A stretch of 64,000 bases of DNA, from IMG/VR virus record IMGVR_UViG_3300046787_000675, positions 96,706 to 160,705 of that record. One strand, given 5' to 3'. Below, in pieces: positions 21,850 through 64,000 of this stretch; position 1 is the first letter of the stretch, and each line of letters starts with the position of its first letter. The notes below the pieces were generated by a model. It saw only the letters and a list, made by a program, of their open reading frames with translations. It was not told the DNA's origin and did not search any database. A program made the position numbers and the translations under genes. This stretch comes from a virus.

Positions 21850-22272
21850 TTAATCCTTCTGCACCTGCTGTAATGTTTTAGGCATAATTACTGTTAATTC
21901 ACTGCCCGCTGCTGTCTTTAATGTTATTTCTATACTTAAATAATCTACATCCTGTTTAGTGACTCGTAATGTATAATTGGCTATTTTCTCATCGTCAGGT
22001 GTAGATGTTGTGTAGCTCTCATCTAATTGTTGAAGTACATTATTACATGCTATTCTTAATGTTCCGTCCGCACCTGCGATATCCGCTACACTAATAACGT
22101 TTCTAACAGCGGGAATAGTGGTACCTCTACCAAAAGGATCTGTTTTTATATCTGTCAATAATAATATCATGAACCTTTGTACTAATTTAGCAACACCTGT
22201 TATAAATGTACCGTTCATATCTAAGTCCGGGGTACTATCTTTAATATTACCTAAAATGTTTATATCGTACAT
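21850..22272 (-). CDS. gp25-like baseplate wedge protein
   Basis: 140 residues. The small alpha/beta fold, the RFMILLLTDIKTDPFGRGT segment and the position immediately before the J-like protein match the gp25/W family, which nucleates the sheath on the baseplate. It overlaps the 131-residue gene by one base. Similarity is by pattern and order, not by a precise motif. Confidence 0.7.
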   Translation of the reverse strand: MYDINILGNIKDSTPDLDMNGTFITGVAKLVQRFMILLLTDIKTDPFGRGTTIPAVRNVISVADIAGADGTLRIACNNVLQQLDESYTTSTPDDEKIANYTLRVTKQDVDYLSIEITLKTAAGSELTVIMPKTLQQVQKD

Positions 22273-25574: not shown

Positions 25575-26016
25575 TGTTAAATTCCTGTATACGACCTATA
25601 AAATCTATTTTAAACGTATTACCTTCTACATTATCTTTACTATAATTACCTATATCCATGCTTGTTGCCCAACCAGATAAAACAATTTTGTTAAATGACA
25701 TTTGTATAGGTGTTCGTTTATTTGTTATTTTTATTGCGCGATAGAACGCCATAAAAGGAGGGATCTCGGAGTCACTATTTTCACATGCACTTGTTATATT
25801 TATACCTTCCAACGTAAATACCCCTAATCTATCGTTAAATACATTGATAAATGCGCGAGACCCTAAGCTATATAGTATTTGGAAGTTAGGAGACAGATTA
25901 CCTTTTATATCTGTTATCCATGTATTCGCCCCGTTCAGCTCGTTAATAACTAGTCGGACAGGGGAAGATGCACTAATCTCTCCTATCTCTGTCGAGGAAA
26001 AATAATCGTTCTTCAT
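25561..26016 (-). CDS. Baseplate/tube-like protein, 151 aa
   Basis: A small beta-rich protein with a central segment (NTWITDIKGNLSPNFQILYS) and FKIDFIGRIQEF at the end, a layout resembling tube-like baseplate proteins that join the tail tube to the hub (T4 gp48/gp54 class). It starts four bases inside the end of the tape-measure gene. Tentative, by position and size. Confidence 0.5.
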   Translation of the reverse strand: MKNDYFSSTEIGEISASSPVRLVINELNGANTWITDIKGNLSPNFQILYSLGSRAFINVFNDRLGVFTLEGINITSACENSDSEIPPFMAFYRAIKITNKRTPIQMSFNKIVLSGWATSMDIGNYSKDNVEGNTFKIDFIGRIQEFNNGRN

Positions 26017-41323: not shown

Positions 41324-44300
41324 TTACGGAACGGTAACTGTACCGGTTCCAAGAAAGTATGTATCGTTAATAAATGTTGCTCCGCTGCCTGTGGCACCAT
41401 ATGAGCCACTAGCTTGCGCTACTCCACCTAATGTTAAGGCTGAGATGTTTCGTGTTCCTACATAGTTTAGGTTTGCTTTACCTGTGCCACTGATTAACAA
41501 ACCGCCACCCCCTAAACTATTAGCAGTATCGAATTTTAGGATACCTGCAGAAATGTTTGTAGTGCCTGTGTAAGTGTTTGTACCGGACAGTGTCCATGTA
41601 CTTGTATTAACCTTGGTTATTGATACTACGGCGGAACCATTGGCAATAGCACCTGTAATAGTATTCAGAAGGTTAGTGCCGTCGAGCTGCATTGTTTTCG
41701 TTACAGCGTTTCCTGTGACGGTACCTATAGATACGAAAGCTGTTGTAGGGGTAAAGATAGCAGTACCTGCAGCACCGCCACTCAATGTTACTTGTGGGAG
41801 TGTTATGCCTGCGTTTCCACTAGTTACATGACTACCTGCGGTAAAACCATGAGTAGCATTCGTAGCTCCGAAATTAAAAGCACCTATGCTATGATTTAGC
41901 GCAGCACCGTTAGTTGCTCTATCTGACACAAGTGTGTAGGTGTTAGCAGCAGAAGCTGTTGTCATAGTGCGGAATGATGTAAAGGCTGTATCAGTCCCGA
42001 ACTCAAGGAAACAAGACGCACTATTCATGTTAACACTGCTCGCGGTAGAAGCTGCGTTGAGGTTTGTCAATCTTAAAGTACCTGCCTGTATAGTAAGAAC
42101 ACCTGTAAAGGTATTAACTCCTGCAAGAACCCATAACCCTACCTCTACTTTAAGTACAGCAACAACCGATCCTGCGCCGTCGGCAATAACTCCTGCAAAT
42201 GTATTAAGGCCTGTGTTAGTACCTGCCAGTCTTAAGGTTTTTGCCCCACTGTTTACAATAAGTAATGCTTGTTGTATAATAAGGTTACTTGCAGCTGTCG
42301 TACCTAAAGCAGATATCGTTACCTGTCCTGCATTGGTAATTCTAAAAGGTCTATTAGCTAATGTAGTTGTAGCTCCACTTGCACTTAACCATCTAAATGT
42401 TCCAGTCGCTCCTGTAAGGGTTATAATCTCAGAGGAATCCCCGATACTAGCAAACCCCAGACCATAACCTGTATTATCCGCTGTTGCTGATGTTATAGGT
42501 CCTGTAAAAGTATTGGCTGCATTTGTAAATTCAAAAGTAGTAGAGTGGTTGGCGAATAATGTACCGTTACCACTTAGTACACCAGTAACAGTCTTAGCAG
42601 AGTTACCACTTGTAAGTGTTAATGTAAAGCCATTATCTATGACTAACGGTCTATTATAAATAGTCACATTGGCCCCCATATACCATGTAGAAGTACCTGC
42701 GCATCTAACCTGAGCACCTCCAGCACCTAGGTGGGAGTCTGAATTAGTAGATAGTATACCTTGATTAATTATAGTTTCTCCAGTGTATGTATTGGCTCCG
42801 GATAGGGCTTGAGTACCTGCACCTGTTTTTGTTAGCGTCATTCCGGTGGCACCGTCGGAGATTATACCAGAGTAGGTGACATTCTTTCCTGTTATAGTGT
42901 TTAGAGTTAATGCTGTAATAGCTGAATAACCAGCTGCTTCTATTTTATTTGCAAGATTTACTGCCCCCCTAAGACCTCCTAACTGAACGGCTGTTAAACC
43001 TGTAAGCCTTAGTGTTCCTGCACCTGTAGTATCTAATACACCACTGTCTATGGATGTAGATGTGGTGATTTCTAAAATGCCTGTTGTAACTAAAACAGTA
43101 CCCGAAATAGATGTATTATTACTGTTTGTCAGTACCCACCTACCTATTCCTACTTTAGTTAATGATAATACTGCTGATACTACTACAAAAGAGCATGCGA
43201 TTGTGTTAGCATCTGTACTAGTACCATCCACGGTTATCGTTTTCGCAGAGGAATCGTTAGTACCTAATTGACCTGTGTTGCTAAATACAAGAGGTCCTGA
43301 GCCATTGGCACTTAGCCTGAAGTTTCCTGAGATTCTGAACAGTCTGTTTGTAGTGTGTCCTGCACCTGTATATCTGAACTCACCACCTATGAATATTAAG
43401 TTAGTGTCCGCTGTAGATGACGCTGCTCCTATACAGGAAGGAACTGCAGCATCTGTCATATTAGAGACGATTAATATTCCTGACGATAGAGTAGTAACAC
43501 CAGTATATGTATTTGCTGTATGCCCTAGCTTCCATGTTCCTGCCTCTACTTTGGTAAAACTAACAGCAGAACTAGCCCCATTAGCAATCAAACCGTTAAA
43601 TTCGTTTACGCCTGTGTTTGTGCCTCCTAAACGGAAAGATAGAGTCTGTGTCTTGAGTACAATAAGATTTGTGTTGACAACGATTGTATTAGACGCACTT
43701 GCATTGTTATTAGACAATGTAGGTACATTAGTTACAGTACTTCCTAGGGTTACTTCTAGCTGTCTGTTATTGATGACTAGTGGGGCTAAACTACCGAATA
43801 TGGAAAAAGTTGCGGTAGATGCTACGTTTCCAGTAAACTGTAAGTTACCATATCCTATACCATCTAGTAGATTACCTAGGGCAAATATAGGGGTAGAGCT
43901 AGACCCTGAACCTACCCTTAAAATACCTGTAAACAAACTAGCATCAACTATTGTAATCGCAGCTCCTCCATTTCCGTCTGTTACTGCAAGTATAGAACTA
44001 TTAGAGCCTGACTTAGCAGATGCATAAGAATGACTATTACCCGTCGATGGGAATATCATACCGTATGCCCCTGCTGTAACAATTATTTGACCTCCTACAA
44101 AACCCACAGATGCTGTATTATTGATTTGTAGAAAGGTTGTTGAGGCATATGCACCATCGAATATTATGTTTATTCCATTAGGGATAGCTCCAACAGCAGT
44201 AGATCTTACCTCTCCTGCTGATATAACTATTAATCCCTCTGGTATGGCATTGCTTCCATTAGCCAGGACTAGTCCCCCTACTCCTTTTTTAGTAATCCGT

Positions 44301-44656
44301 CTGGCTGATACAATACAATTGAGAGTAACAAACCTATTGACAATATCAAAAATAGGTTCGTCACCTGTCAAAAATATTGTATTTCCTGAATTCACAGTCC
44401 AATCATGGGATGGAGTAGCATCCCCGAACTTCCATATTTTCCCTTTTCTATCAGCTCCTAGAGTAAGTGTAGGTGCTCCTACTATATTCGCTTGGCTGAA
44501 GTCAACTACATCAAAGTCGTTAGGTGTAGGTGCAATACCCCCTACCCAGTCCGCACCAGTAACCCAGTTGTGTGCGCCTCCTGCTGTCTGTGACCAGACA
44601 TGGACTACTCCGTGCTTACCGTTGGCGAATTGACATTTAAAGGCTGTTAAAAACAT
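41324..44656 (-). CDS. Adhesin-like fibre with PATR (autotransporter-associated) repeats
   Basis: 1110 residues. It has an opening segment HVWSQTAGGAHNWVTG ... WVGGIAPTPNDFDVVDFSQA, then at least six repeats of the form [TSV]LTKxGxGxxxLxGxNTYTGxTxIxxGxL (for example LTKTGAGTQALSGANTYTG; ITKVNTSTWTLSGTNTYTGT), and an end like ALTLGGVAQASGSYG ... GTVTVP. Such repeats form a right-handed beta helix in bacterial autotransporter and surface proteins. ATG at 44656 is preferred because it overlaps the upstream stop (TAATG), as in several coupled genes here; a start at 44692 is also possible. It is probably a long tail fibre or host-surface binder. Confidence 0.75.
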   Translation of the reverse strand: MFLTAFKCQFANGKHGVVHVWSQTAGGAHNWVTGADWVGGIAPTPNDFDVVDFSQANIVGAPTLTLGADRKGKIWKFGDATPSHDWTVNSGNTIFLTGDEPIFDIVNRFVTLNCIVSARRITKKGVGGLVLANGSNAIPEGLIVISAGEVRSTAVGAIPNGINIIFDGAYASTTFLQINNTASVGFVGGQIIVTAGAYGMIFPSTGNSHSYASAKSGSNSSILAVTDGNGGAAITIVDASLFTGILRVGSGSSSTPIFALGNLLDGIGYGNLQFTGNVASTATFSIFGSLAPLVINNRQLEVTLGSTVTNVPTLSNNNASASNTIVVNTNLIVLKTQTLSFRLGGTNTGVNEFNGLIANGASSAVSFTKVEAGTWKLGHTANTYTGVTTLSSGILIVSNMTDAAVPSCIGAASSTADTNLIFIGGEFRYTGAGHTTNRLFRISGNFRLSANGSGPLVFSNTGQLGTNDSSAKTITVDGTSTDANTIACSFVVVSAVLSLTKVGIGRWVLTNSNNTSISGTVLVTTGILEITTSTSIDSGVLDTTGAGTLRLTGLTAVQLGGLRGAVNLANKIEAAGYSAITALTLNTITGKNVTYSGIISDGATGMTLTKTGAGTQALSGANTYTGETIINQGILSTNSDSHLGAGGAQVRCAGTSTWYMGANVTIYNRPLVIDNGFTLTLTSGNSAKTVTGVLSGNGTLFANHSTTFEFTNAANTFTGPITSATADNTGYGLGFASIGDSSEIITLTGATGTFRWLSASGATTTLANRPFRITNAGQVTISALGTTAASNLIIQQALLIVNSGAKTLRLAGTNTGLNTFAGVIADGAGSVVAVLKVEVGLWVLAGVNTFTGVLTIQAGTLRLTNLNAASTASSVNMNSASCFLEFGTDTAFTSFRTMTTASAANTYTLVSDRATNGAALNHSIGAFNFGATNATHGFTAGSHVTSGNAGITLPQVTLSGGAAGTAIFTPTTAFVSIGTVTGNAVTKTMQLDGTNLLNTITGAIANGSAVVSITKVNTSTWTLSGTNTYTGTTNISAGILKFDTANSLGGGGLLISGTGKANLNYVGTRNISALTLGGVAQASGSYGATGSGATFINDTYFLGTGTVTVP

Positions 44657-46263
44657 TAGATACCGTACCCTTTTATTGCGGACATATACCATTTATTGTT
44701 CAAGCACACAAAGTTTACAAGGTCTACTTTATCATTTAGATTAGACACCACAAATGTACCTGCGTCACCCGGGTCAGCTCCTGTAAATGTTACAGATGTA
44801 GCGACAGGATTACCTGTGGCTACTTGATGTAAAAAAACGGAAAAAGACTTACCGTTGTGTAAGGTCGGGTCTGATAATGAGAAAACTTCTGCGGTACCTG
44901 TCCTTAGTCTTCTTTGTAATATTGTTTTGTGTGTAATATCCAACACTTCAGGATTAGCAGACACAGTTATAGGGGAAGCATCTACACTCTCCGTAACACC
45001 GTCTACAACCAGATTTCCTGTCATAGTACCGCCTGCTTTCGGTAGATACTGAGGGTGATCGTTGTCAGATAATCCTAACAAATTTCCATGATCAGTTGCC
45101 GAACCGCCGGAAAATGTTGTTCCGAAAGCTGACTCAATAGCAGTGAATGCTGATGCTGCCTGACCTATAATGATTCTACCTACGAGAATGGCATGGTCTT
45201 GGAAATAAGGCGGAACATCTCCAGGTATTTTAACAGCTTGCGCTTCTACAAGGGTATAATCACCTTGTCCATAAACTACATGTAAATCCCCATCCACATC
45301 GATGTAAACCCAATGCACTCCATATTTACCAACTGTTAGTGCTGCTAAGGTTCCAGACCCATTGTCGTAATTTAGGTTATTAATTTGTGTTTGGCTTGTT
45401 ACACCAGTCCACCCACCTAAACCATCTCTATAACTATACTTGAAGGTATTAGCACCTGATGTGTCTTTTACTGGTGTGGTGAAGCGGTTAAATCCGTACC
45501 AGAATACCCCAGTAGTAACTCCAATGTTTCTAGTACCTGTTGCGTATAAAACTCCGCCGCTTTCTCGGGCTGTAGGGTCGGTAGCATTCATTCGTCTAAC
45601 CATTAATGCCGCATGATCGTTTATCGATATTCTCGACTGACTTGTTATATGTAACTCTGTTCCAGTCCGGTATACTGACCCTAGATATATATTGGTATTT
45701 AAATCTGTTCGTTTAACGCTGGTTGCTATAACTCTAGGGGATCCTCCATTATATTCGACATAAATATAATTTAAAGCGTTATCGATAAGCGTGACATTAA
45801 CCCCTGAATCAGCTACCCAGGAGGTAAAATATAACCCGGCTACCCCGCTATCTGTAGCGCGTATAGTACCGTTACCGGAAGAGACTGTAATTGTGCCGTC
45901 TCCGTCATCTGAAATTGATCCTCCCTCATAAACACCGGTAGAATGATTTAAGTCTTGCATGTCCTGCATTGACCCTTTTGCTGCACCTTGTGTAGCTAAA
46001 AGAGGGAGGATGTCTCCTTGAGTAATTAACCAATCTGCTTCTGTTGTCGGGTTATCTATCAATGCCATTAATACATCATTAACTTCAACAGGAATAGTAA
46101 AAAATGTACCAGCAACAGTAACATTATACTGATCGCCCTTACGAATAGAAGAACTAGGGGCCACATCTAAGTCAGGAGTGTTTGTAGAGGCGTTATAGCC
46201 GCTTTTATAGTCCTCGGCATTGCTGATTATAGCATTAATATTTGTATTATCTTTAATAGGCAT
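44656..46263 (-). CDS. Tail fibre / baseplate appendage protein, 535 aa
   Basis: The N-terminus (GYNASTNTPDLDVAPSSSIR ... KGDQYNVTVAGTFFTI) and the later LGLSDNDHPQYLPKAGGTMTG segment are hallmark phrases of phage fibre proteins, the latter marking a shaft that precedes a tip domain. The C-terminal about 120 residues probably form the head. It ends with TAA overlapping the ATG of the PATR adhesin, so the two fibres are made together. Receptor unknown. Confidence 0.8.
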   Translation of the reverse strand: MPIKDNTNINAIISNAEDYKSGYNASTNTPDLDVAPSSSIRKGDQYNVTVAGTFFTIPVEVNDVLMALIDNPTTEADWLITQGDILPLLATQGAAKGSMQDMQDLNHSTGVYEGGSISDDGDGTITVSSGNGTIRATDSGVAGLYFTSWVADSGVNVTLIDNALNYIYVEYNGGSPRVIATSVKRTDLNTNIYLGSVYRTGTELHITSQSRISINDHAALMVRRMNATDPTARESGGVLYATGTRNIGVTTGVFWYGFNRFTTPVKDTSGANTFKYSYRDGLGGWTGVTSQTQINNLNYDNGSGTLAALTVGKYGVHWVYIDVDGDLHVVYGQGDYTLVEAQAVKIPGDVPPYFQDHAILVGRIIIGQAASAFTAIESAFGTTFSGGSATDHGNLLGLSDNDHPQYLPKAGGTMTGNLVVDGVTESVDASPITVSANPEVLDITHKTILQRRLRTGTAEVFSLSDPTLHNGKSFSVFLHQVATGNPVATSVTFTGADPGDAGTFVVSNLNDKVDLVNFVCLNNKWYMSAIKGYGI

Positions 46264-50505: not shown

Positions 50506-53100
50506 CTAGTGCATATTATACATAGTTACTAACTTAGCATCTTTATCCCTGCCGCTGAGGTATGATAACTCATACTTAGCATATTCTTTTGCAAGATATA
50601 CGCTTTCGGCGGTTGGCTGTGTTAGTTTCTTGCAGTTTGCTTCTTTAGATATAGGGTTAACAACGATTATTTTTAATACTCGTTTATTTAATGGTCCTTC
50701 ATCCATAGAATGACTATCTACAAGATTACCTATTATATCATCTAGACCAGACCAATGACCTGTTTCTTTTGGTGTATATGATCCGTCTTCTACTGCCTCA
50801 GTTCCTTCCTCTTTTAATTTCTGAAAGATACTAGGCAAAGCGCTTGTTATATCCTCAAGACCCTCGATGTTTCCTTTAGGTTTCTTGAGAACTATCCTTA
50901 TAAACGATTTAGGAGGTAGTAATATACCTTTCTTATTACATCTGCTTATAACATCGTCTAACGGATAATTGCAAAGCTTACACATAGACTCTTCGTCTAA
51001 TTCGTCCGAAAAGCTATTTGATAGTAACTTAACATCACTATCTGCGTGTTCAAGCTGTATTCGTTTTTCCATATCAGCTAATTTCTCTAATAAGCGTGCT
51101 CTTCTGCCCACTTCTTCCCCTGCCAGCTTATCAATTAAGCTATGCGGGATATATAAACCTTTATTAATTTCTCTGTCAATTGCGAATACGTCTTCGCTTT
51201 TATAATTCTCTGAAGCTACTTTAGATAGACCAAATGCTATTCTATCCGCAGGTTTATCTACACAAGATATGTCGTGGAAGTGAGGCTGGTCATTATACAT
51301 AAATATTTGACTGCCTTCTTTAGTAAGTTCCAATTTATTATATTTTACATGGTTACAATAATCTGATAATACTTTTGCTTTATTGCCGCATACAGAACAG
51401 TTATGTACTGCTACTCCATTGGCTATGTAGGATTCGTCACCCTCTACAGACATATTATACACAACTTCATCTACAGCTTCAATCTCCCTTATAGACACAA
51501 CAGGTGTATATACATAATCACCTACCAACCTAGTCTTGGTAGCGGTTGCCCTAGTAGACCAGGCTGTAATGTATCCTGCTTTTACGGATAGATCTTTAAG
51601 CTCTTCTAAAAGGTCCCTCGACAGACAAACTACAAAAATATTTCCCGAGCTACTATAGTCCGAATTATAATAAGGTTGTCTATTTACAGATATACCGAAC
51701 CCTGCTGACGCAGCTTGTCTTGTTAAAGTATGTGCTAAATTTCTAGATGTTACTGTTATTCGTCCGTACTGTTTATCTACATCTACATGTCCGTCGGAGT
51801 CTAACATACCTGCTACAAAATTTAGTGCTTGTTTAGGTGGAAGAACGCCTGTTAATGTTTTATATAAGCTATATTCCTTACAATATTTTCGACAAAGAGT
51901 AGCTAATCTCTGATCATACATAGATAATTTTACAGCTCCTTTATCATCATATTTACGGCATTCTTTACCTGTTATTGCATATAAAGTAGACGCAACTCTA
52001 TCTATTATAGCTGGGTGTTTTAGGTCTAATGTAAAACTAACCCCCATATCTTTAATAGGATCTTTATCCTTATTCTTCCCTCCTCGCTGCTTAATGAGGT
52101 GCCCATCTCCGGCATACATTCCTAATATATACGCTTCATCCTCAGATATATCAGTAATATCAGCCTTAGCAACAGGGTATACTAGGCAATCTCCTATTCT
52201 TAGATCCTGCGCAGCTATCCACTCTGGAACAGCTATATACTTAGAACATACAGCACATATCAAACTTCCATCTTTAGGAACGCATTTACGTTTACCTGTC
52301 GCGGTACTTCCTTGACATACTGTTAATTTATCTCTGGGGACTACTAAGTAAGGGTGGTTACCTGTAACGTAAGACTCTTCTGAGATATCCCCTGAGGATA
52401 TAATACTATACATAGCTCCTGAGTAAATATTACGCATGGTTGTTAAAACCTTCTTCCATGCCCCGGTATGTGTACGGACATTGTCTCCTTGTTCTATGTC
52501 TTCTATATTTTTTAATCCATGTTCTGTTTCTATAGAAGTACCTTTAGTAAAACACACGTCGTAAGGTAAACCGGCACCCATACTCCAGAAGACATTGCCT
52601 TTGTCCGATGCAAGTTTATTTAACTCGTCTGACCATAGTTCTTCCGGGAGTTTAACAATTAGCTCACCTCTATCCATTTTATCGTTATATGCTTCCAGAA
52701 CAACTTCCCCAAGAGGTTTACCATTCTTTCTACCGTTTACATGGTTTCTGTAAGGTTTAGCGTACTTTAAGAAAGTGTTATGATACTCTTTTAAACCGCC
52801 TCCCAGGAGCATGCTTTTCGGACCTTTAGGTTCTTCAAATTCAACCCGGCGTGCTTCTTTATTAAAGTAGTCCGCGTTGTTATTAGCTCCGTATCTCTCT
52901 CCGGATCCTGTAGTAATTAAATGTACAAAACCAAAACCTTTCTCCGGCTTTATATCTGCTGCTTTAAACAGGAAATAGTCGTCGGAGGCGATCTTCTGCA
53001 GCTCGTGTCTATCAAGTCCTTTAGCGAAACTACCGATAAGATGAGAAGTCTTGCAGATATCCTTAAAAGTCTGAGAAGGTTGTATGTACTTATTTAGCAT
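50506..53100 (-). CDS. Head maturation protease interrupted by an intein
   Basis: 864 residues; removing the 385-residue intein leaves 479. The host part has candidate catalytic His120 (YRNHVN), the P-x-G-E-V strand and the nucleophile-type DISCVDKPADRIAF segment (S612) typical of prohead proteases, plus a zinc site split by the intein: C568-x2-C571 ... C582-x-H584 (CSVCGNKAKV ... YCNH). It should process head proteins during maturation. Eight hydrophobic-x-K-x-A motifs lie in the host parts and none in the intein. It lies between two K-x-A-rich proteins and the scaffold. Confidence 0.75.
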   Translation of the reverse strand: MLNKYIQPSQTFKDICKTSHLIGSFAKGLDRHELQKIASDDYFLFKAADIKPEKGFGFVHLITTGSGERYGANNNADYFNKEARRVEFEEPKGPKSMLLGGGLKEYHNTFLKYAKPYRNHVNGRKNGKPLGEVVLEAYNDKMDRGELIVKLPEELWSDELNKLASDKGNVFWSMGAGLPYDVCFTKGTSIETEHGLKNIEDIEQGDNVRTHTGAWKKVLTTMRNIYSGAMYSIISSGDISEESYVTGNHPYLVVPRDKLTVCQGSTATGKRKCVPKDGSLICAVCSKYIAVPEWIAAQDLRIGDCLVYPVAKADITDISEDEAYILGMYAGDGHLIKQRGGKNKDKDPIKDMGVSFTLDLKHPAIIDRVASTLYAITGKECRKYDDKGAVKLSMYDQRLATLCRKYCKEYSLYKTLTGVLPPKQALNFVAGMLDSDGHVDVDKQYGRITVTSRNLAHTLTRQAASAGFGISVNRQPYYNSDYSSSGNIFVVCLSRDLLEELKDLSVKAGYITAWSTRATATKTRLVGDYVYTPVVSIREIEAVDEVVYNMSVEGDESYIANGVAVHNCSVCGNKAKVLSDYCNHVKYNKLELTKEGSQIFMYNDQPHFHDISCVDKPADRIAFGLSKVASENYKSEDVFAIDREINKGLYIPHSLIDKLAGEEVGRRARLLEKLADMEKRIQLEHADSDVKLLSNSFSDELDEESMCKLCNYPLDDVISRCNKKGILLPPKSFIRIVLKKPKGNIEGLEDITSALPSIFQKLKEEGTEAVEDGSYTPKETGHWSGLDDIIGNLVDSHSMDEGPLNKRVLKIIVVNPISKEANCKKLTQPTAESVYLAKEYAKYELSYLSGRDKDAKLVTMYNMH
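51400..52554 (-). mobile_element. Intein with LAGLIDADG endonuclease in the protease gene
   Basis: Starts at C183 (CFTKGTSIETEHG) and ends VAVHN (H566-N567) before C568, leaving DV|CSVCG. It contains the Hint splicing blocks (TGNHPYLVV near 246-254), two LAGLIDADG-type motifs (ILGMYAGDGH and FVAGMLDSDG) and an extra four-Cys cluster (C262, C273, C282, C285). The Hint elements support splicing; homing activity is inferred. Confidence 0.9.
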
Positions 53101-56558: not shown

Positions 56559-59540
56559 TTATAATCGTGTAGGATCCATCAATTTACTTGCATAACCTAC
56601 ATCGTCATGTTTACTGGTTCCACCTAATCTGATATCTTCCAGTAAATTTTTCTTTAAATTGAAACCTGTTAATTTATTTTTGAAGTCTGGGTCCGTTCCC
56701 GGTATATCCATAATTCTCATCGGTGCCGGTTCGAAGCCCGGCGCAGCGTCGTGCGTTTTAATACTTTTAATCTGTTCTTCTTTTAAAAACTTTGCAACCT
56801 TAGGTGTTATCCGTGTTCCAATACTGTAATGTAATACAGGCTGCTCTAGATATTTACCTACAGCTCTATCGGGAGATAGCTCGATGGAATCTTTACGCGG
56901 TTGGTAGTTTCGCTGAATGTCGCTATATGTGACAATATCATCAATGACATGGCCGTTAGGTCCTTCGATATCTGTTATTTTTACGCGGTCAAAGAATCCC
57001 CTAGCTAAAGTTTCTACATGGCGTTGTTTAACATTTATTCCGTTGTTTTTTAATATCTGTCCAAATTTATTAACAAAATAAAGACGCGCATCTCCTATCC
57101 CTTTATACTTTGCCATCTCAGCGGGATTAGGTGTTCCGTCAGTTAACATATCTCCTTGTTCAATCTGATCGCCAACAGTAACTAATACATCCCGAGCAGG
57201 ACTAGCATAGAATGCCTCTCCGCCTACAGTTATGTACTTGCCTCCTTGAGGGGCGTCCGATATACTCTGTACTATTCCATCTTTATTAGATAATACAGAT
57301 CCTCCTCTAAAATGTTTAGGTACTTGAAGGAATTGATTGACTTCCTCGAATCCGGATAATTCATCGGAGAACTGTTTACCCCCAATAATGCCCCCTGTGT
57401 GTTTGGAGGATAACCCTGACTGAGTTAAAGGTTCAGACAATAAACGACCTGTATCAACACCTACATAGGCTCCTATTTCTGGAAAATTACCTTTATCTCG
57501 TTTTCCGGCACAGCGTCTACATATCCCGTTACCTGATTGACATGTTATTAACGATCTAACAAGTAATTTCTTATCTTGGATAGCGGGTAGATGTTTTTTT
57601 GTTATAGTTGTTCCTGCAGGTACATTCCCTACATCCTTAGCAAGCACTCGACCTATAACATCGCTGTTGTCGCCCAACATAATAATACCTTTGTCGGATG
57701 CGCCGCAATCGTCTTCGACTACTTGTACACGAGAAGAAGCTAAGGCTAATTGTTTACCTAAAAATCCTGATTTTGCTGTCATGAACTGAGTGTCAGAGTT
57801 AGATACTACCATCCCGTTAGCCAATACAAATAAATGGTCTTCGTGATCTACTTCAAGATCGTATGTAGAGCGAGTGCCTAATACTGATGTACTAACATAA
57901 TTTAATCTTGTATCTTGTGATCTCCCGTCGGATTTTACAGAATGGATTATCTCTCTGACTTTTTTACCTTTTTTTCCAATAGTAGTTAGATATTGACTTC
58001 TATACAACACCGATTGTCTATCGGAATAACTTAATACATAAGCGTCTCTAGATGCCTTTATAGTATACCCGTAAGATGATGATTCGGGTATATTTTTTTT
58101 ATCTATATGAATTATATCTGTACAATATATTCCTAGTCTAGTCTCTAGTAGATATCTAATTCCTTTGAGTAACTCTTCGGATGTAGAGTGATATCTGATA
58201 ACAGGGGTTGAAGTAATTCCACTTATTGTACTTCCGCCATCAGCTTCGAAAAATCCATTTATAAATGCACATACACTATTATTATCCCATGTCATAACTT
58301 CTGGAGGTATTACTTTTTCATATGATTTTTTACCTAAAAGACCGAAATTAGCTATCCATGCTTTAGCACTATTAGAGGAGAATTTATTTTTTCTATCTAA
58401 ATCGAGTAACACATATTCGTAGGATGGCATTTTCGATTTTCGATTACGCTCTTTATATTTTAAATACCAATTTAAAGGTTGTAATAATTCATTTAAGGCG
58501 TCGACTAACTCAATATCACTAGTAGTTAAAGTTATAGAATTTTGGACACTAAAGTGCCCATCCCCTATTAATAAACCGAGTAGAAACGCTTTAGTAGTAT
58601 CGTACGGAATCCCATTAAAATTATTTCCTTTTGATAAAGTTATACCGAAATTCTTTTTAGCAGTACCAATAGGATATTTATCTTTTTTGCGGCGAAGTAA
58701 ACTACCAGTAGTCCATTCCCCCAATACTTTATGATCTTCTGTACATTCTATATATCTATACGAGTGTGTTCTTCCTAGTCTGAATCTATATGAGTAAACT
58801 TGTTTTATTCCGTTATCGTAGGTATTGACTACTTGGGTAGGGAATGTATTCCCTTTCTTATCTGAACCTAGAACATATTCTCCTACGTTTATATCTTCAA
58901 TCGATTTCTGTGTCCCATCAGCCATGCGTACTTTAGTTCCTTTTGCGAGACAATACCCTTTTCTCGAAGAGAAAGACCCGGCAAAATACTCCATGGGTTT
59001 TGCCCCTTGAGCGTACCCATTGATACCTGGAACAGGAATTGGCCTACCTGCTTGGTCGGCTACAAGTATGTCGCCAAATAATAATTGTGTTAGCTGTACA
59101 GGAGAACCTCTAAAACCGTGCTTAATACTTTCCCCTAAAGAATTGTTTCCTTTACTGGTGCTATCAAGGACGATCTTGTTAATTACAGGCATCTCTTTAC
59201 GCATGTATTCTACAATCTCTTTGTTTTTCTGCTCGGGAGATTTCCTTCTATCCTGTTGGATGTCGACAATATTATTTTTTATAACCTCGCGATATTTCTT
59301 TACTTCATCTGGCATTTTTAAATCGGATAAACGTATAGACGCCAGTCCTCCTTGTTCTGTTCCGGCTACCCTGGAAACATTCATAAGGGACTGCATTGTA
59401 TCGATATATTTGTCAGGATGTCTCTCGGCCATTGCCAGGAAAAATGTCTCTGCAGATTTCTTGTTAAAGACTCTATCCGGATCTCGTAAGTCTTCCGGAA
59501 TTATATCGTTTATCAGATATTGACCTAATGTGCGCGCCAT
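56559..59540 (-). CDS. RNA polymerase beta' subunit, C-terminal half, with intein
   Basis: 993 residues; 608 without the intein. The host sequence holds the bridge-helix region (SSRKGY | SDTQFMTAKSGFLGKQLA, corresponding to ARKGLADTALKTA), then VVEDDCGA, and a complete second zinc site C612, C667, C674, C677 with the same internal spacing as bacterial beta' (7 and 3 residues). A trigger-loop-like EIGAYVGVDTGRLLSEPLTQ ... GLSSKHTGG follows. This is the catalytic C-terminal half of a multisubunit RNA polymerase. The matching N-terminal half is a separate gene (62995-64000). Assignment strong; the beta subunit is not in the window. Confidence 0.9.
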   Translation of the reverse strand: MARTLGQYLINDIIPEDLRDPDRVFNKKSAETFFLAMAERHPDKYIDTMQSLMNVSRVAGTEQGGLASIRLSDLKMPDEVKKYREVIKNNIVDIQQDRRKSPEQKNKEIVEYMRKEMPVINKIVLDSTSKGNNSLGESIKHGFRGSPVQLTQLLFGDILVADQAGRPIPVPGINGYAQGAKPMEYFAGSFSSRKGYCLAKGTKVRMADGTQKSIEDINVGEYVLGSDKKGNTFPTQVVNTYDNGIKQVYSYRFRLGRTHSYRYIECTEDHKVLGEWTTGSLLRRKKDKYPIGTAKKNFGITLSKGNNFNGIPYDTTKAFLLGLLIGDGHFSVQNSITLTTSDIELVDALNELLQPLNWYLKYKERNRKSKMPSYEYVLLDLDRKNKFSSNSAKAWIANFGLLGKKSYEKVIPPEVMTWDNNSVCAFINGFFEADGGSTISGITSTPVIRYHSTSEELLKGIRYLLETRLGIYCTDIIHIDKKNIPESSSYGYTIKASRDAYVLSYSDRQSVLYRSQYLTTIGKKGKKVREIIHSVKSDGRSQDTRLNYVSTSVLGTRSTYDLEVDHEDHLFVLANGMVVSNSDTQFMTAKSGFLGKQLALASSRVQVVEDDCGASDKGIIMLGDNSDVIGRVLAKDVGNVPAGTTITKKHLPAIQDKKLLVRSLITCQSGNGICRRCAGKRDKGNFPEIGAYVGVDTGRLLSEPLTQSGLSSKHTGGIIGGKQFSDELSGFEEVNQFLQVPKHFRGGSVLSNKDGIVQSISDAPQGGKYITVGGEAFYASPARDVLVTVGDQIEQGDMLTDGTPNPAEMAKYKGIGDARLYFVNKFGQILKNNGINVKQRHVETLARGFFDRVKITDIEGPNGHVIDDIVTYSDIQRNYQPRKDSIELSPDRAVGKYLEQPVLHYSIGTRITPKVAKFLKEEQIKSIKTHDAAPGFEPAPMRIMDIPGTDPDFKNKLTGFNLKKNLLEDIRLGGTSKHDDVGYASKLMDPTRL
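57798..58952 (-). mobile_element. Intein with LAGLIDADG endonuclease in the beta' bridge helix
   Basis: Starts C197 (CLAKGTKVRMADGTQKSIED) and ends GMVVSN (N581) before S582. The Hint N- and C-blocks (CTEDHKVLG; DHLFVLANGMVVSN) and LAGLIDADG motifs (FLLGLLIGDGH; AFINGFFEADG) are present. The penultimate residue is Ser, not the usual His. Length 385 residues, the same as the protease intein. It lies directly in front of the bridge-helix segment that reads SDTQFMTAKSG. Confidence 0.9.
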
Positions 59541-59548
59541 TTATAACT

Positions 59549-60184
59549 CTATCTGGTTGTTTTTAGATTATCGATAATGCTTTGGAAATAATCAGATAAT
59601 TTAGATTTAGCAATAGTTAAATTACTGGAGGCGTTCTCTGCTTCCTGTCTATATGCATCGGCATTAGCCTGCCAGTGTTTAGCATATCTGCTCCATTGCT
59701 GACCTTCGGGGGTATCTAAACCTACTTTCTTAGCGTGTTGCTGAGCAGCCTGGTATTTTAGACTGGCATCTTGATATCGTGCTAAAGGCTCCGCCATATT
59801 GCGTAGTACCAACGGTCTATCTTCCGCTTTTATAGGTTGAAGATTTACAGTATCACCAAATATTTTAGTGGATGCTTTAAGCTCTTCAGCAGTTGCAGGG
59901 GTTAGATAGTCCGGTCCGTTTTGCAGGATCTCTCTTTTTCTTTTCTCTGTCCAGCCTTGAATATCATTATCTGCCGGAGTTTCTCTATGCTCGTTTATTA
60001 GATCACCTGCAAAATAACCTACGCCTGCACCGATACCTCCCCCTAATGCTTGAGGGAATAACTTCTTATCTTTTTCTGGGATAAGTTTCCGGGCAAGAGC
60101 TACACCGGCAATGGCACCGAGAGGTGTTGTAAACAACCGGGCATCTATCTTCCCGGACGGTCTTTCGTACCATGTTGGATTCAT
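59549..60184 (-). CDS. Glycine-zipper helical protein, 211 aa
   Basis: Residues 15-60 contain a hydrophobic segment followed by a glycine zipper (LGAIAGVALARKLIP ... LGGGIGAGVGYFAGDL), a form often able to enter membranes. The rest is a charged helical region. It precedes the beta' gene by eight bases and follows the Pro/Met-rich protein by four. Possibly an internal virion protein released with the genome; inferred from the similarity to the 35956 and 61571 proteins. Confidence 0.55.
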   Translation of the reverse strand: MNPTWYERPSGKIDARLFTTPLGAIAGVALARKLIPEKDKKLFPQALGGGIGAGVGYFAGDLINEHRETPADNDIQGWTEKRKREILQNGPDYLTPATAEELKASTKIFGDTVNLQPIKAEDRPLVLRNMAEPLARYQDASLKYQAAQQHAKKVGLDTPEGQQWSRYAKHWQANADAYRQEAENASSNLTIAKSKLSDYFQSIIDNLKTTR

Positions 60185-60188
60185 ATTA

Positions 60189-60917
60189 TTACCTCAGATT
60201 ATATAGGCGTTGTATAATTGTACCTAGCTCACTGTTATTTATTTTTTTTTGTTGGGCTAACTTTTCGACAGGAGGCGGCGCGAAAGACTCAGGCATTGCT
60301 TCCGGCATAGGAGGAGCAGACAGTTCTTCTGAAGGCATTGTAGGAACGCCTTCTGGAGCTACCATACCTAAATTTGCTTGCAGTAAGGCTACCTGTTCTG
60401 TTAAAGCATCTATCTGCATTTGCATCTCTTCAAATCTACTATCAGAAACCGGTTTATCTTTTTTAGATTTAGCACCACTGCCAATTAATTCTACCAATTC
60501 ATCTACGGTTAACTCACTAACGAGTTTAGGAGCTGTTTCTCCATCCTTGGCACCTACATTACCGATTGCATTCGGGTCAGGTCCGACAGGAGTCATTCCG
60601 CCGGCAGCAGGATCTAAAGGAGGCATACCACTTGCTTGATAAGCTGCCATTAAATCTTCTGCGGAAGGGACTCCACCGGCAGGGGGCATTGCACCCATCA
60701 TAGCAGGATCCATTGGAGGCATTCCTCCTGGGGGTATCGCGCCCATCATAGCAGGATCCATTGGAGGCATTGCACCCATCATAGCAGGATCCATTGGAGG
60801 CATTGCACCCATCATAGCAGGATCCATTGGCGGTTGGCCTGGAGGTGGTCCCGGAGGTGCATATGCTGTCTTCTGTAAGAGATCTTGTAAAGCAGCCAAG
60901 TTTAATTTTTCAGACAT
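60189..60917 (-). CDS. Pro/Met-rich repeat protein, 242 aa
   Basis: The N-terminal third contains four copies of the unit PPMDPAMMGA, then an acidic helical region and a second proline-rich segment (SAPPMPEAMPESFAPPP). Two hydrophobic-x-K-x-A motifs occur (LQKTA near the N-terminus, VEKLA near the end). It may be a flexible internal virion or scaffold protein. The DNA repeats are nearly identical, so copy number probably varies between relatives. Confidence 0.6.
   Translation of the reverse strand: MSEKLNLAALQDLLQKTAYAPPGPPPGQPPMDPAMMGAMPPMDPAMMGAMPPMDPAMMGAIPPGGMPPMDPAMMGAMPPAGGVPSAEDLMAAYQASGMPPLDPAAGGMTPVGPDPNAIGNVGAKDGETAPKLVSELTVDELVELIGSGAKSKKDKPVSDSRFEEMQMQIDALTEQVALLQANLGMVAPEGVPTMPSEELSAPPMPEAMPESFAPPPVEKLAQQKKINNSELGTIIQRLYNLR
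60691..60837 (-). repeat. 33-bp tandem repeats encoding PPMDPAMMGA units
   Basis: Units begin at 60739, 60772 and 60805, each 33 bases apart, with a fourth at 60691 separated by a 15-base insertion. The copies are almost identical, showing recent duplication within the gene. Confidence 0.85.
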
Positions 60918-60929
60918 ATTATAATCCTT

Positions 60930-61565
60930 TTATTTATTATCCAATTTATATAGATAGCCTGCTATATAGGCTTCTTTGTTTACATTACTATCTTGTAAAG
61001 TAATGCTGTGCGCTTTCTTTTCCAATGTAGATTGCGAATACGTGTTCGTTTTTATAGTTTTTACAGCTTTCAAACGATTACCGTTTATAGGCGCATATCC
61101 TCCGGTCATATGTCCCAGAAGAAATATTTCCAGTTGTTTGGGTGTCTTTGTCTGAAGTTTATCCCAGCCGTCCCCTTCTTCCGATGTCGGTTTAGATACG
61201 GTATCTACCTCTGCGATAAATATATGATTATCTTCTCCCGCATATTTATTTGCCCAGCTTCCCATTGCCTTCTGCATTGAGGGAGGCCATTTCCAGACAA
61301 CCTTAGAAATTAATTTAATATTTTTTAACGTTATCCCGCATTCCTCTAATGCCTCTCTGCGAACTGCAGTTACCGGACCTTCTCCTTCGTCTATTCCTCC
61401 TCCCGGTACCTCAACATATAATCCGCCTGCAGACGATCTCTTAATACGTGCAACAATAGAGCCATCAGGCATTATAGCGAATACCTCAGCTCGTTTTCTA
61501 TAGGGGAGCGATGCCCCCTTTAGTGTTGTTAATTTTACGGTTTCATCGCGGGCGTATTTTAACAT
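60930..61565 (-). CDS. Nudix hydrolase with C-terminal virion-like tag
   Basis: 211 residues. The Nudix box G56-x5-E62-x7-R70-E71-x-x-E74-E75-x-G77-I78 is exact (GGIDEGEGPVTAVRREALEE then CGI), so it should hydrolyse a nucleoside-diphosphate-linked compound. Its C-terminus (VNKEAYIAGYLYKLDNK) repeats the tag found at the N-termini of the proteins at 61571 and 62795. A further LEKKA motif is present. It lies between the two RNA polymerase half genes; possible substrates include NTPs, capped RNA ends or dinucleotides, not determinable here. Confidence 0.85.
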   Translation of the reverse strand: MLKYARDETVKLTTLKGASLPYRKRAEVFAIMPDGSIVARIKRSSAGGLYVEVPGGGIDEGEGPVTAVRREALEECGITLKNIKLISKVVWKWPPSMQKAMGSWANKYAGEDNHIFIAEVDTVSKPTSEEGDGWDKLQTKTPKQLEIFLLGHMTGGYAPINGNRLKAVKTIKTNTYSQSTLEKKAHSITLQDSNVNKEAYIAGYLYKLDNK

Positions 61566-61570
61566 ATTGT

Positions 61571-62341
61571 TTATTCTTTTTGTCTACCTTGCATTCTGTT
61601 GATAGTGTCCAGGACTTTTCCGGCTTTGCGTTTATTGTCGGATTGTTCAAGTAAACTACTTCCTAGCCCGACGGCATCGGCTCCAAGACGTGTACCTAAA
61701 CCTGCCAATGCAAGTTCTGGTTTGGCTGTTAGTGCGCCTGCAAGACTGACTAATTGACCAGCAGTTTGTAGTCCTGTTCTTGCTGTTTCGCCTGTTAAGT
61801 TTTTGAATTTTTTATCAGGATCTGTAATTGCCTCCGCTACTTCTGTATATCCGCTATCTGCCCATCTAGCTCCAGGCATTATTATACTCTTCAATGCCGA
61901 CTTTATACCTCCAGTATCAGATATTCTCTTTAGTTCCGGTGTAAGTTCTTTAATATCTGCAGTAGCCCCTTCTGCCGCTAATCTTTCAACTTTACTCCGT
62001 CTTAGTTTACGAGCAAGAAGTAAGGCAGCCAATCCACCTACTCCTCCTGAAATACCGGCAATTACAGCTCGTTTGCTATTACTCATATTTTTACTTAGAT
62101 AACCCCCTAGAGCAACTCCGCCAATAGAGCCTGTAAGCCCAGATACCATGTCGGATGCTACCGGATGGTTAGTGTTAACGGAAGTATCACCGGCTGCTTC
62201 GGCAAGTGCTTCCATTCTACCGGAATCTGTATTACCGTTAAAGAATAAGCTACGTTGGTCTTTAGATCTATCGAGGAGTTCCTGGATTGTTGGGTTAGCT
62301 TCTTTATACATGTACCCATTTAAAAATGCTGTCTTATTCAT
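61571..62341 (-). CDS. Glycine-zipper protein with N-terminal tag, 256 aa
   Basis: It begins MNKTAFLNGYMYKEANPTIQ, the tag shared with 62795 and with the Nudix C-terminus. A Gly-rich membrane-type region follows (VSGLTGSIGGVALGGYLSKN ... VIAGISGGVGGLAALLLARK, residues about 65-115) and a basic helical tail. It may be a virion-carried membrane protein. It overlaps no neighbour closely and starts four bases after the lipoprotein gene ends. Confidence 0.6.
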   Translation of the reverse strand: MNKTAFLNGYMYKEANPTIQELLDRSKDQRSLFFNGNTDSGRMEALAEAAGDTSVNTNHPVASDMVSGLTGSIGGVALGGYLSKNMSNSKRAVIAGISGGVGGLAALLLARKLRRSKVERLAAEGATADIKELTPELKRISDTGGIKSALKSIIMPGARWADSGYTEVAEAITDPDKKFKNLTGETARTGLQTAGQLVSLAGALTAKPELALAGLGTRLGADAVGLGSSLLEQSDNKRKAGKVLDTINRMQGRQKE

Positions 62342-62344
62342 ACT

Positions 62345-62620
62345 TTATTCCACTATTTTTTTGATTAAATTAGTTCCTGCACCTGCAGGTGTAAGGGAGG
62401 ACGGATCTACACTAATAGGGATAGCCTGTTTAGCATCTTGTTTAGTGTCTTGCTTAGAGTCTTGGGTGTTATCCGAAGAAGTAGTTACTGTTATGTCGTT
62501 AACAACCGCATTATCGCCAAATGTAATAGTAATTCTTACACCGGCAGCTGTTTCGTTTTCGAATGGGGTAGTTGCACATGCAGTCAACAAAACAATGCAG
62601 ATAATTAATAAATATCTCAT
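62345..62620 (-). CDS. Small lipoprotein, 91 aa
   Basis: Signal peptide MRYLLIICIVLLTAC with lipobox L-L-T-A-C15 is followed by a polar, Thr/Asp/Gln-rich mature part (repeats DSKQDTKQDAKQ). It is likely lipid-anchored in the cell envelope, perhaps a spanin or exclusion factor. AAGGAG precedes the ATG, inside the 3' end of the tiny gene upstream. Confidence 0.6.
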   Translation of the reverse strand: MRYLLIICIVLLTACATTPFENETAAGVRITITFGDNAVVNDITVTTSSDNTQDSKQDTKQDAKQAIPISVDPSSLTPAGAGTNLIKKIVE

Positions 62621-62621
62621 G

Positions 62622-62738
62622 TTATTTCTCCTTTTTAATTTTGTTATCTATTTTTTCTTTAACGGTTTCATTTATGTTTTTCTGAAGTTCTTTACTTTTT
62701 TCTTTAGCAAACTTTTTTAGATCGTCTTTGTCAGTCAT
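62622..62738 (-). CDS. Lys-rich small protein, 38 aa
   Basis: A short frame (MTDKDDLKKFAKEKSKELQK ...) that ends within the ribosome site of the lipoprotein gene. It is a highly charged amphipathic helix with Lys at regular steps. Only a weak AGG precedes its start, so it may be a real micro-protein or a coincidental frame. Not recognised. Confidence 0.45.
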   Translation of the reverse strand: MTDKDDLKKFAKEKSKELQKNINETVKEKIDNKIKKEK

Positions 62739-62794
62739 ATATGTACCTATTTATTGTTATATTAATTGACTCTATTTATTTAAAATTTCACTAT

Positions 62795-62989
62795 TTATTT
62801 TTGAGATAAACTTAATAAAGCTTCAAGTTGGGCTTTCTTATAAGGGTCGAAATAAACACCTTGATAAAAAAGATTGTTCGGGTCAATAGAGTTCTCTAAG
62901 AAAGCCTCTGCAGTAGGCCTATAAGGAAGTACGGAAGCGTCGCGTGACTCTTTATACATATATCCATCGAGGTAGGCTTGCTTGTTCAT
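62795..62989 (-). CDS. Tagged small protein, 64 aa
   Basis: It begins MNKQAYLDGYMYKESRDASV, nearly the same tag as the 256-residue protein, then a short alpha/beta piece. Otherwise no family is recognised. It sits six bases after the beta' N-terminal gene. If the tag is a virion- or protease-directed signal, this protein is likely carried in the capsid. Confidence 0.6.
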   Translation of the reverse strand: MNKQAYLDGYMYKESRDASVLPYRPTAEAFLENSIDPNNLFYQGVYFDPYKKAQLEALLSLSQK

Positions 62990-62994
62990 TTTTC

Positions 62995-64000
62995 TTATTT
63001 CTTTATGTCTAATATTTCGATCGGATCGTCTATTTTTATTAAACCTTTACTGAAGGCTTTAATGGCGTCATCCTTTGTTTTAAAAATAGTCTTCTGTTTA
63101 TTCCTGTCCGGGTCTTTGGAGGCAAAGTATAAACCTTGTAAATATTCGTTACCCAGCATGTAAGTAGGTTTATCTGTTCCGCTAAGGATAAGATTCTTAT
63201 CCGGCATCATGCGATCGATAGCTTCCTGTACTGCATCTTCCGATACAGGGACGGAGTAGGACATTGTGTTCGATAATATAGTTCCGTCGACAGACATGAA
63301 AGTTTCATATCCAGGAACAGTTAAATCGTATCCTGTTTCTACTTTTTCGGTGTTTTCAACCGATACAACGTATGTCCATGTAGTATCAGTATCCTCGACT
63401 ATTCTCTTCCAGTTATTAAATGGTTCAAGAATATCAGCAGGAGTATTACTATCGATAAGATCTAAACATTTCTGAGCCGACTGCCGACTAATATAACCTG
63501 ACTTATTACTGTCTGCGAGAGCATGATAGAGACCTGTACATTGTCTTCCGTGTTTTAATTTCGGGCTTCTATTATATTCTGCTAACTTAAGGAAAGCTGC
63601 AAGGTTTCTCTCTATAGGGACTAAATCGCTTTTTATATAAGCTGCCGCAGTATTATCAGGCGTAACCTCGAACAACTTTCTATGTTTATCTTCATGCGCA
63701 ATACAGAGTTCATCCCGTAATATAATTAGTTCTACTGCCGATATTGTAAGCATCCAACTAATATTATCACACTTAGTTGTTTTACCATAAGATATACGGG
63801 AGGACACACCTAACGACATAAGTAGCTGTTTTACCTCCTGTACCAAGCGAAGAGATATAGAAGAGAAAGATGTCATAAGTTGTGGTTTACTTTTTCCGTT
63901 AGATATAGATATACTTCCGTCAGAATCAAACAGTCCAGATAACAGCCCTATTTTAAACTCTCTAGGGGAACATAACCAAAAGGATGGTAAGTGTTTTTTA
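62995..64000 (-). CDS. RNA polymerase beta' subunit, N-terminal half, with intein (partial)
   Basis: The frame is open to the right edge, so the 5' part and about 60 percent of the intein-containing gene are outside. Inside, after the intein, the host sequence TMSYSVPVSEDAVQEAI ... MLGNEYLQGLYFASKD matches the segment that follows NADFDGD in beta' (QMAVHVPLS ... DVVLGLYYMTRD). Its C-terminus (KAFSKGLIKIDDPIEILDIKK) is the end of the N-terminal half. A separate gene (56559-59540) holds the other half, so the subunit is split as in some giant phages. The DFDGD motif itself is just outside the window. Confidence 0.85.
   Translation of the reverse strand, partial: KKHLPSFWLCSPREFKIGLLSGLFDSDGSISISNGKSKPQLMTSFSSISLRLVQEVKQLLMSLGVSSRISYGKTTKCDNISWMLTISAVELIILRDELCIAHEDKHRKLFEVTPDNTAAAYIKSDLVPIERNLAAFLKLAEYNRSPKLKHGRQCTGLYHALADSNKSGYISRQSAQKCLDLIDSNTPADILEPFNNWKRIVEDTDTTWTYVVSVENTEKVETGYDLTVPGYETFMSVDGTILSNTMSYSVPVSEDAVQEAIDRMMPDKNLILSGTDKPTYMLGNEYLQGLYFASKDPDRNKQKTIFKTKDDAIKAFSKGLIKIDDPIEILDIKK
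63268..64000 (-). mobile_element. Intein at the NADFDGD site of beta' (3' part)
   Basis: Ends DGTILSN (63268-63270 is the final Asn) before T+1, giving the extein T-M-S-Y-S. A LAGLIDADG motif, FKIGLLSGLFDSDGSIS, lies at about 63907-63957. The C-terminal Hint block is YDLTVPGYETFMSVDGTILSN; the penultimate residue is Ser. The 5' part and the splice start are beyond the edge. Confidence 0.85.

What the first reader, a model, noticed from the sequence alone, without database searches (positions are those of the whole stretch)
56559..64000. Split phage RNA polymerase beta' with inteins in both catalytic cores
Two separate genes encode the N- and C-halves of beta', and each is interrupted inside its catalytic core. 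One intein ends immediately before the T-M-S-Y-S that follows the NADFDGD loop; the other ends before the bridge-helix start S-D-T-Q. Both carry LAGLIDADG motifs. Neither half can be active before splicing, so protein splicing may gate phage transcription. The family match (zinc cysteines, bridge helix, post-NADFDGD strand) is established beta' knowledge; the gating idea is inference.
Basis: partly seen in the sequence, partly recalled or inferred. Interest (0 to 1): 0.9.

Follow-up and report, generated by a model that had tools for sequence, protein, structure and literature searches.

The report
Phage RNA polymerase invaded by inteins
A large phage makes an RNA polymerase whose catalytic parts are interrupted by self-splicing protein inserts, and the insert in the catalytic loop belongs to a small family that lacks the amino acid normally used to start splicing.

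Summary
The window ends where its 160,705-base virus record ends; the record's ends overlap by 166 bases, and the 'N-half' gene runs on to 2,380 codons. It is a beta-beta'N fusion with two inteins: one late in beta, one exactly after ADFDGD. The separate beta'C gene has a third, in the bridge helix; another gene nearby has a fourth. No second beta' was found. Of 82 related fusion-type ORFs, 44 are of intein-free length and 21 carry inserts, at nine places. Extein and intein trees disagree and insert sites are unusually conserved: mobile homing inteins, not a conserved gate. The surprise is the catalytic-loop intein. In seven distinct phage sequences it starts with K, Q or L instead of Cys/Ser, has Asp for the block-B His, ends (I/V)LSN and is followed by Thr; two of them are naturally split genes. 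It fits neither class 1 nor class 3 and only partly class 2. Most likely Thr+1 attacks the N-junction directly. Splicing itself was not tested. Gating of phage transcription is untested and not favoured.

The parts
62995..64000 (-). 3' end of the beta-beta'N fusion gene (the rest is record positions 6303-167; total 2,380 aa)
   Evidence: 166-base overlap of record ends; joined reading frame 7,143 nt with one stop, at its end
63268..64000 (-). C-terminal part of the DFDGD-site intein (residue 1 = Lys at record 999; ends ILSN)
   Evidence: LAGLIDADG_3 1.1e-12; Intein_splicing 1.5e-05, below its curated cut-off
62995..63267 (-). C-extein after DFDGD: TMSYSVPVS..., last 90 residues of the fusion
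   Evidence: collinear with insert-free relatives, whose ORFs end about 84-91 aa after DFDGD
56559..59540 (-). beta' C-half gene, 993 aa
   Evidence: TIGR02386 9.5e-47; PF04998 2.7e-14
57798..58952 (-). Cys1 intein in the bridge helix (RKGY|C...VVSN|SDTQ); 'bridge helix' by recall of bacterial beta'
   Evidence: insert at the same site in the L018 group
56559..57797 (-). C-extein of beta'C
50506..53100 (-). gene that looks like a head protease (by recall only, no profile match) with another intein at 52554-51400 (LPYDV|C...VAVHN|CSVCG)
   Evidence: Hint_2 1.4e-07, Intein_splicing 8.7e-07 (below its cut-off), LAGLIDADG_3 1.4e-06; coordinates

Best explanation
This is a phage-encoded multi-subunit RNA polymerase made of a beta-beta'N fusion protein and a separate beta'C protein. 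Mobile homing inteins have invaded it at conserved catalytic motifs. The precursors must splice at three places (late beta, after DFDGD, bridge helix) to give an intact active site. The inteins in beta and in the bridge helix look like ordinary class 1 (Cys1, Asn|Ser). The DFDGD intein belongs to a distinct phage group with the same hedgehog/intein fold but no nucleophile at residue 1 and no block-B His. It most likely splices by direct attack of the C-extein Thr+1 on the Asp-Lys bond, followed by Asn cyclisation, as class 2 inteins do with Cys+1. Shown: gene layout, insert boundaries, missing residues, mobility pattern. Predicted: fold. Inferred: that splicing occurs, and its chemistry.
For: Gene continuity. 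Family profiles. Empty sites in relatives fix the junctions. Seven divergent DFDGD inserts (28-40% identical to each other) start K/Q/Q/K/L/Q/Q and have TDDD, TDND or SDDD in block B; no Cys is invariant; YDLTVPG.(E/D)TF and (I/V)LSN are kept. By contrast 20 of 21 printed inserts at other fusion sites start with Cys and one with Ser (read by eye). +1 is Thr in 8 of 8 distinct DFDGD-insert cases against 11 of 76 ORFs without an insert there, 9 of 41 distinct contexts. Model of the L081 insert: mean pLDDT 74.5, matches full-length inteins, best Z 20.7 to 7qsu. Mobility: trees conflict, Mantel r -0.17, p 0.74; sites in conserved stretches, p 0.0002. No intron family in the nine sources searched (one tRNA only) or in laxer searches of four stretches (one miRNA-model match far below its threshold).
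Against: No experiment. Residues 1-13 of the model are under pLDDT 50. By the aligned ranges, residue 1 of many solved inteins falls at model residue 9-10, one or two places before the Lys at 11; the extein alignment, not the model, fixes the junction. Direct attack by a Thr hydroxyl is less easy than by Cys, and an internal Ser/Thr (Ser103, Thr505, Thr511 in 7 of 7; Thr123 in 6 of 7) could do the first step. Cleavage without ligation is possible. Related sequences are not independent, so the Thr+1 contrast is weaker than its count suggests. The unrooted intein tree does not show that the seven are one clade: L017 falls with L063 and L097 at low support (0.614).
Confidence: 0.66

Rival explanations
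1. Splicing is a regulatory gate: the phage keeps inteins in its RNAP so that transcription starts only after conditional splicing.
For: Inserts sit in DFDGD, the bridge helix and, in relatives, by the trigger loop. In the relative Arash the RNAP genes lie beside portal and structural genes, so a delayed or packaged enzyme is conceivable.
Against: Patchy: 6 of 82 ORFs at DFDGD; no co-divergence of intein and host gene; LAGLIDADG_3 in 7 of 7 inserts scanned (six of the group plus L017) and in the window's own; conserved-site bias as homing predicts.
Confidence: 0.1
2. The DFDGD insert no longer ligates: it only cleaves at its C-terminus (or not at all), and the RNAP works with beta' broken after DFDGD.
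For: Residue-1 nucleophile and block-B His are both missing in 7 of 7; in L063 and L097 the gene itself is broken inside the insert; phage RNAPs tolerate splits elsewhere (PMC7598289, passages).
Against: Thr is at +1 in 8 of 8 though C-terminal cleavage does not need it; the strand after DFDGD would be lost from the catalytic barrel; the beta' split in the passages I read lies after that domain, not inside it.
Confidence: 0.13
3. An internal Ser or Thr (for example the invariant Ser of WSxH), or the extein's own Asp-1, starts the reaction, so this is a separate mechanistic class rather than class 2-like.
For: Ser103 is kept in 7 of 7 and in L017; block-B Thr123 in 6 of 7, Ser in the other; Asp-1 is fixed by the extein's catalytic motif.
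Against: No direct evidence; WSxH may be structural; class 2 offers a precedent with Ser at G:6 (PMC4031507, passages).
Confidence: 0.2
4. RNA-level intron carrying a LAGLIDADG frame, not an intein.
For: In-frame LAGLIDADG inserts also occur in group I introns (general knowledge); two copies have a stop inside the insert.
Against: Predicted intein fold end to end; Intein_splicing matches in 7 of 7 inserts scanned at E 0.01 or better; Asn-Thr C-junction; no intron family match.
Confidence: 0.02

Closest known systems
Class 2 inteins (KlbA; PMC4031507 and PMC7664689, passages seen)
   Same: No residue-1 nucleophile; Ser at G:6; C-terminal Asn; +1 residue available for direct attack
   Different: Thr rather than Cys at +1; K/Q/L rather than Ala at 1; block-B His replaced by Asp; in phage RNAP, not KlbA; two members split
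Class 3 inteins (WCT motif; PMC7664689, passages seen)
   Same: No residue-1 nucleophile; phage-associated; Thr+1 occurs (in the inteins of L127 and L128, which I read as class 3-like by eye)
   Different: F:4 is Asp (YDL), not Cys, and G:5 is Leu, not Thr, in 7 of 7
mReC phages, Caudovirales with deeply branching multi-subunit RNAP (PMC7481178; abstract, sections 6 and 12, passages seen)
   Same: Metagenomic tailed phages with beta and beta' alignable to cellular ones; probably an overlapping set (accessions not compared)
   Different: The word intein does not occur in that paper's main text
Jumbo phage vRNAP/nvRNAP (phiKZ, AR9; PMC7598289, passages seen)
   Same: beta' split after the catalytic barrel domain, as in cyanobacteria
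   Different: Here beta and beta'N are fused; the word intein does not occur in that review's main text
Inteins in eukaryotic and archaeal RNAP genes (PMC1635734, passages seen)
   Same: Several non-allelic inteins in RNAP genes at highly conserved sites near the active centre
   Different: Eukaryotic nuclear, viral-remnant and archaeal genes; the eukaryotic ones in the second-largest subunit
Zeta crAss-like phages (PMC7886860, passages seen)
   Same: Many introns and inteins; RNAP frames disrupted even within the DxDxD motif
   Different: Very divergent RNAP with both barrels in one chain; mechanism there left open

Membership tests
Intein (hedgehog/intein fold element) | In-frame insert between conserved extein blocks, empty in relatives | tested here: met
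Intein (hedgehog/intein fold element) | Hedgehog/intein fold from N- to C-junction | tested here: met
   AlphaFold2 model of the L081 DFDGD insert (the window's own was not modelled), Z up to 20.7 to solved inteins; residues 1-13 and 26-81 low confidence
Class 1 intein | Cys or Ser at residue 1 | tested here: not met
   DFDGD intein: Lys in the window, K/Q/L in 7 of 7. The window's inteins in beta and beta'C do have Cys1
Class 1 intein | Block-B His (highly conserved, not universal) | tested here: not met
   DFDGD intein: Asp in 7 of 7; the more distant insert L017 keeps DH and Ser1
Class 2 intein | No residue-1 nucleophile and Ser at G:6 | tested here: met
   definition from PMC4031507
Class 2 intein | Cys at +1, Ala at 1, orthologue of KlbA | tested here: not met
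   Thr+1 and K/Q/L at 1 in the seven; host gene is RNAP
Class 2 intein | Direct +1 attack shown biochemically | not testable with these tools
   needs bench work
Class 3 intein | WCT motif: Cys at F:4 and Thr at G:5 | tested here: not met
   Asp and Leu in 7 of 7; F:4 from PMC4031507 passages, G:5 numbering from recall; the Trp was not tested
Phage multi-subunit RNAP | beta and beta' profiles with catalytic DFDGD | tested here: met
Homing endonuclease-bearing intein | LAGLIDADG domain | tested here: met
   cutting activity not tested

The most novel reading that the evidence does not exclude
The RNAP catalytic-loop inteins are a separate mechanistic class: with no residue-1 nucleophile, no block-B His and no invariant Cys, splicing is carried by Thr+1 (or an internal Ser), possibly helped by the host enzyme's own catalytic Asp at -1. 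The natural split forms, with N-pieces of 21 and 54 residues, would splice the RNAP in trans.
Probability: 0.35. Interest if true: 0.85.

Novelty: new variant of a known kind. Interest (0 to 1): 0.7.

Why it matters
[quoted passage not shown] A further, phage-borne group inside the RNAP catalytic loop would test how far the intein fold alone can carry splicing. If its chemistry needs no Cys, its naturally split members may be useful for protein ligation. The RNAP family is also a natural map of mobile elements attacking one active centre from many sides.

Tried and rejected
(a) Idea that the insert's N-terminus mimics the displaced strand after DFDGD: not significant (shuffle p 0.05, 0.20 and 0.65 at 9, 12 and 16 residues; column permutation 0.16 and 0.30 at 9 and 12). 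(b) dN/dS on near-identical pairs: impossible, L063=L064 and L097=L098 are 100% identical. (c) Cellular homologues of the DFDGD intein: none confirmed among 597 pattern matches in genome contigs; 10 exact pattern matches are all in unrelated proteins by eye. (d) The window's own insert start as viral query: 7 pattern matches, none confirmed. GenBank phages: no match to it at E 1. 26 records match the L081 insert, none over 80% of it (15 listed); of three fetched, two read as class 3-like by eye (L127, L128) and one has Cys1 and ends THN|S (L129). (e) Beta'C alone as viral query found nothing; more relatives came from the beta'N alignment. (f) RNA intron: no family found. (g) Terminase_6N: no match in the own record. 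(h) Two long beta'C ORFs printed (L040, L067) have long C-terminal extensions that do not look like inteins; not counted. (i) Papers: nine searches and passages of eight papers. In what I saw, no RNAP intein of a tailed phage at DFDGD is described; 'rpoC intein' and 'Salmonella phage Arash' found 0 papers. Most subscription papers are not in this library.
Full report
What is there. The window is bases 96,706-160,705 of a 160,705-base virus record. Its last 166 bases match the record's first 166 at 165 of 166, so the gene cut by the window's end continues at the record's start. Read across, it is one frame of 7,143 nt, 2,380 aa, with a single stop at its end. Homologues from other contigs (L081, L101 and others) align without a break over the joint, so the join is unlikely to be an assembly accident; the one mismatch is unexplained. 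RpoB models match between residues 45 and 937, RpoC models from about 1476 to 1770 and in the tail. The gene is therefore a beta-beta'N fusion. It has one insert after GGKTG in beta (aa 950-1328, CFPS...LVSN|S) and one directly after GADFDGD (aa 1769-2290, KQIG...ILSN|T). The beta'C gene (56559-59540) has one at RKGY|SDTQ (aa 197-581); by recall of the bacterial sequence this is inside the bridge helix. Another intein lies in 50506-53100. No other match to three beta' domain families was found in the record.

Relatives. Salmonella phage Arash has the same two-gene layout (gp206 fusion, gp216). Vibrio phages D69, D148 and D181 match too; in D181 the beta'N frame starts inside beta. IMG/VR gave 80 kept loci of 109 confirmed (four of them first seen). 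I read 82 fusion-type ORFs (80 IMG/VR loci plus L012 and L013): 44 are of intein-free length (1,440-1,650 aa), 21 have at least one insert over 100 aa, and 17 start inside beta or are cut off (the three groups are my count from its table, and several loci are near-identical). Inserts fall at nine places of the fusion model (about 116, 378, 402, 518, 594, 775, 816, 919, 1370 of 1,457) and at three or more of beta'C. The beta'C places are the bridge helix (window and the L018 group), just after it (L059, L077) and the trigger-loop region (L017, L059, L062; region names by recall). L101 has beta, beta'N and beta'C in one frame. Fusion insert sites lie in more conserved stretches than random ones (mean 0.78 against 0.67, p 0.0002, approximate positions, 29 non-redundant rows), as published for eukaryotic RNAP inteins (PMC1635734, passages).

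The odd intein. Inserts at DFDGD were found in 6 of the 82 ORFs (L017, L054, L059, L063=L064, L081), in L097=L098 (whose other loci are contigs already held) and in L101 (one new contig of five matched). With the window that makes eight distinct cases. L017 is the most distant (20-28% identity), starts with Ser, keeps a block-B DH and ends QD|T. The other seven (28-40% identity to each other) start K, Q, Q, K, L, Q, Q. They have TDDD, TDND or SDDD where block B should have its His, no invariant Cys, and keep YDLTVPG and ILSN or VLSN. By contrast 20 of the 21 printed inserts at other fusion sites start with Cys and one (L056) with Ser (read by eye; seven further insert-bearing loci with the same hit coordinates as printed ones were not printed). 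In beta'C 7 of 8 inserts visibly start with Cys; the eighth junction (L077) was not in the printed stretch. So loss of residue 1 is special to the DFDGD site. The +1 residue is Thr in 8 of 8, against 11 of 76 ORFs without an insert there (9 of 41 distinct contexts; hypergeometric about 5e-5, worked by hand, ignoring relatedness). A model of the L081 insert with ten extein residues on each side (mean pLDDT 74.5) matches whole inteins: TliVMA 7qsu Z 20.7, rmsd 5.6, 346 aligned; PI-PkoII 2cw7 Z 20.2, rmsd 6.1, 396 aligned; class 2 KlbA 2jmz Z 12.5, rmsd 3.2, 172 aligned. The first strand is modelled at residues 15-21, but residues 1-13 are under pLDDT 50. In many rows residue 1 of the solved intein falls at model residue 9-10, one or two places before the Lys at 11. 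The junction therefore rests on the extein alignment, which needs the last Asp of DFDGD in the spliced product.

Natural splitting. In L063 the frame stops 21 codons after DFDGD. A promoter-like pair follows (TTGACA-16-TATAGT, 11 of 12; two such sites in the stretch against 0.7 in shuffles), then a new start and the rest of the insert with the C-extein. In L097 the first frame ends 54 codons after DFDGD and overlaps a second frame whose ATG follows AAAAGGAGTTTAGGAG; one weaker promoter-like site (9 of 12, 0.1 expected) lies upstream. The two split inteins group together (support 0.981), although their host genes do not. Both breaks lie in the variable stretch between the first strand and the L.D.P motif. 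This suggests trans-splicing, which was not tested; each sequence was seen as two 100% identical contigs.

How it most likely works. The Cys1 inteins should splice by the standard route. In the DFDGD intein an acyl shift at residue 1 is impossible. Class 2 inteins with Ala1 and Ser at G:6 use direct attack by Cys+1 (PMC4031507, passages), and Ser at G:6 is present here in 7 of 7. I therefore favour direct attack by Thr+1. Class 3 is not met on sequence: F:4 is Asp and G:5 is Leu. An internal Ser/Thr or help from Asp-1 stays open. Residue 1 and the block-B His are missing together in all seven, while both are present in L017.

Mobility against gating. The extein tree joins the window with L017 (0.997); the intein tree joins it with L081 and L101 (0.965). 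Identity matrices of the eight do not correlate (r -0.17, p 0.74). The intein tree is unrooted and places L017 weakly (0.614), so I cannot show that the seven are one clade. All seven inserts scanned, six of the group plus L017, carry LAGLIDADG_3, as does the window's. The patchy spread and the conserved sites fit homing. A regulatory gate is neither shown nor needed.

Novelty. Inteins in RNAP genes, intein-rich phages and inteins without residue-1 nucleophiles are each known. Their combination here, and the specific DFDGD group, was not found in the searches listed under Tried and rejected. I rate it a new variant of a known kind.

Noticed in passing
window 62795-62989, 61571-62341, 60930-61565 (near its C-terminus); record 8869-9348, 12105-12875, 21282-22049, 25510-26412, 26416-26961: A short shared motif, roughly K-x-A-(F/Y)-(L/I/M/V)-x-G-Y-(M/L)-x-K, near the start (once the end) of otherwise unlike proteins; also in two proteins of relative L017 and one of L084. 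Possibly a virion-targeting or cleaved tag.
   Followed up: partly
window 60930-61565: Frame with what looks like a Nudix box (GGGIDEGEGPVTAVRREALEECGI, by recall) that carries the tag motif near its C-terminus.
   Followed up: no
window 41324-44692: 1,122-aa protein with PATR passenger repeats (PF12951, 3.8e-24), odd in a phage.
   Followed up: no
L101, frame at 11155-13824 of its reverse complement: Terminase-like frame (by eye) with an intein-like insert (ITHN|STSLGNK) and the start of what may be a second (CHDEETRIL), on the contig with the all-in-one RNAP.
   Followed up: no
L013 (Vibrio phage D181) 3118-3741 and 7898-8515: Annotated free-standing homing endonuclease genes near the RNAP genes.
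   Followed up: no
L017, last residues of the DFDGD insert: Intein ending in Gln-Asp before Thr instead of Ser-Asn.
   Followed up: no
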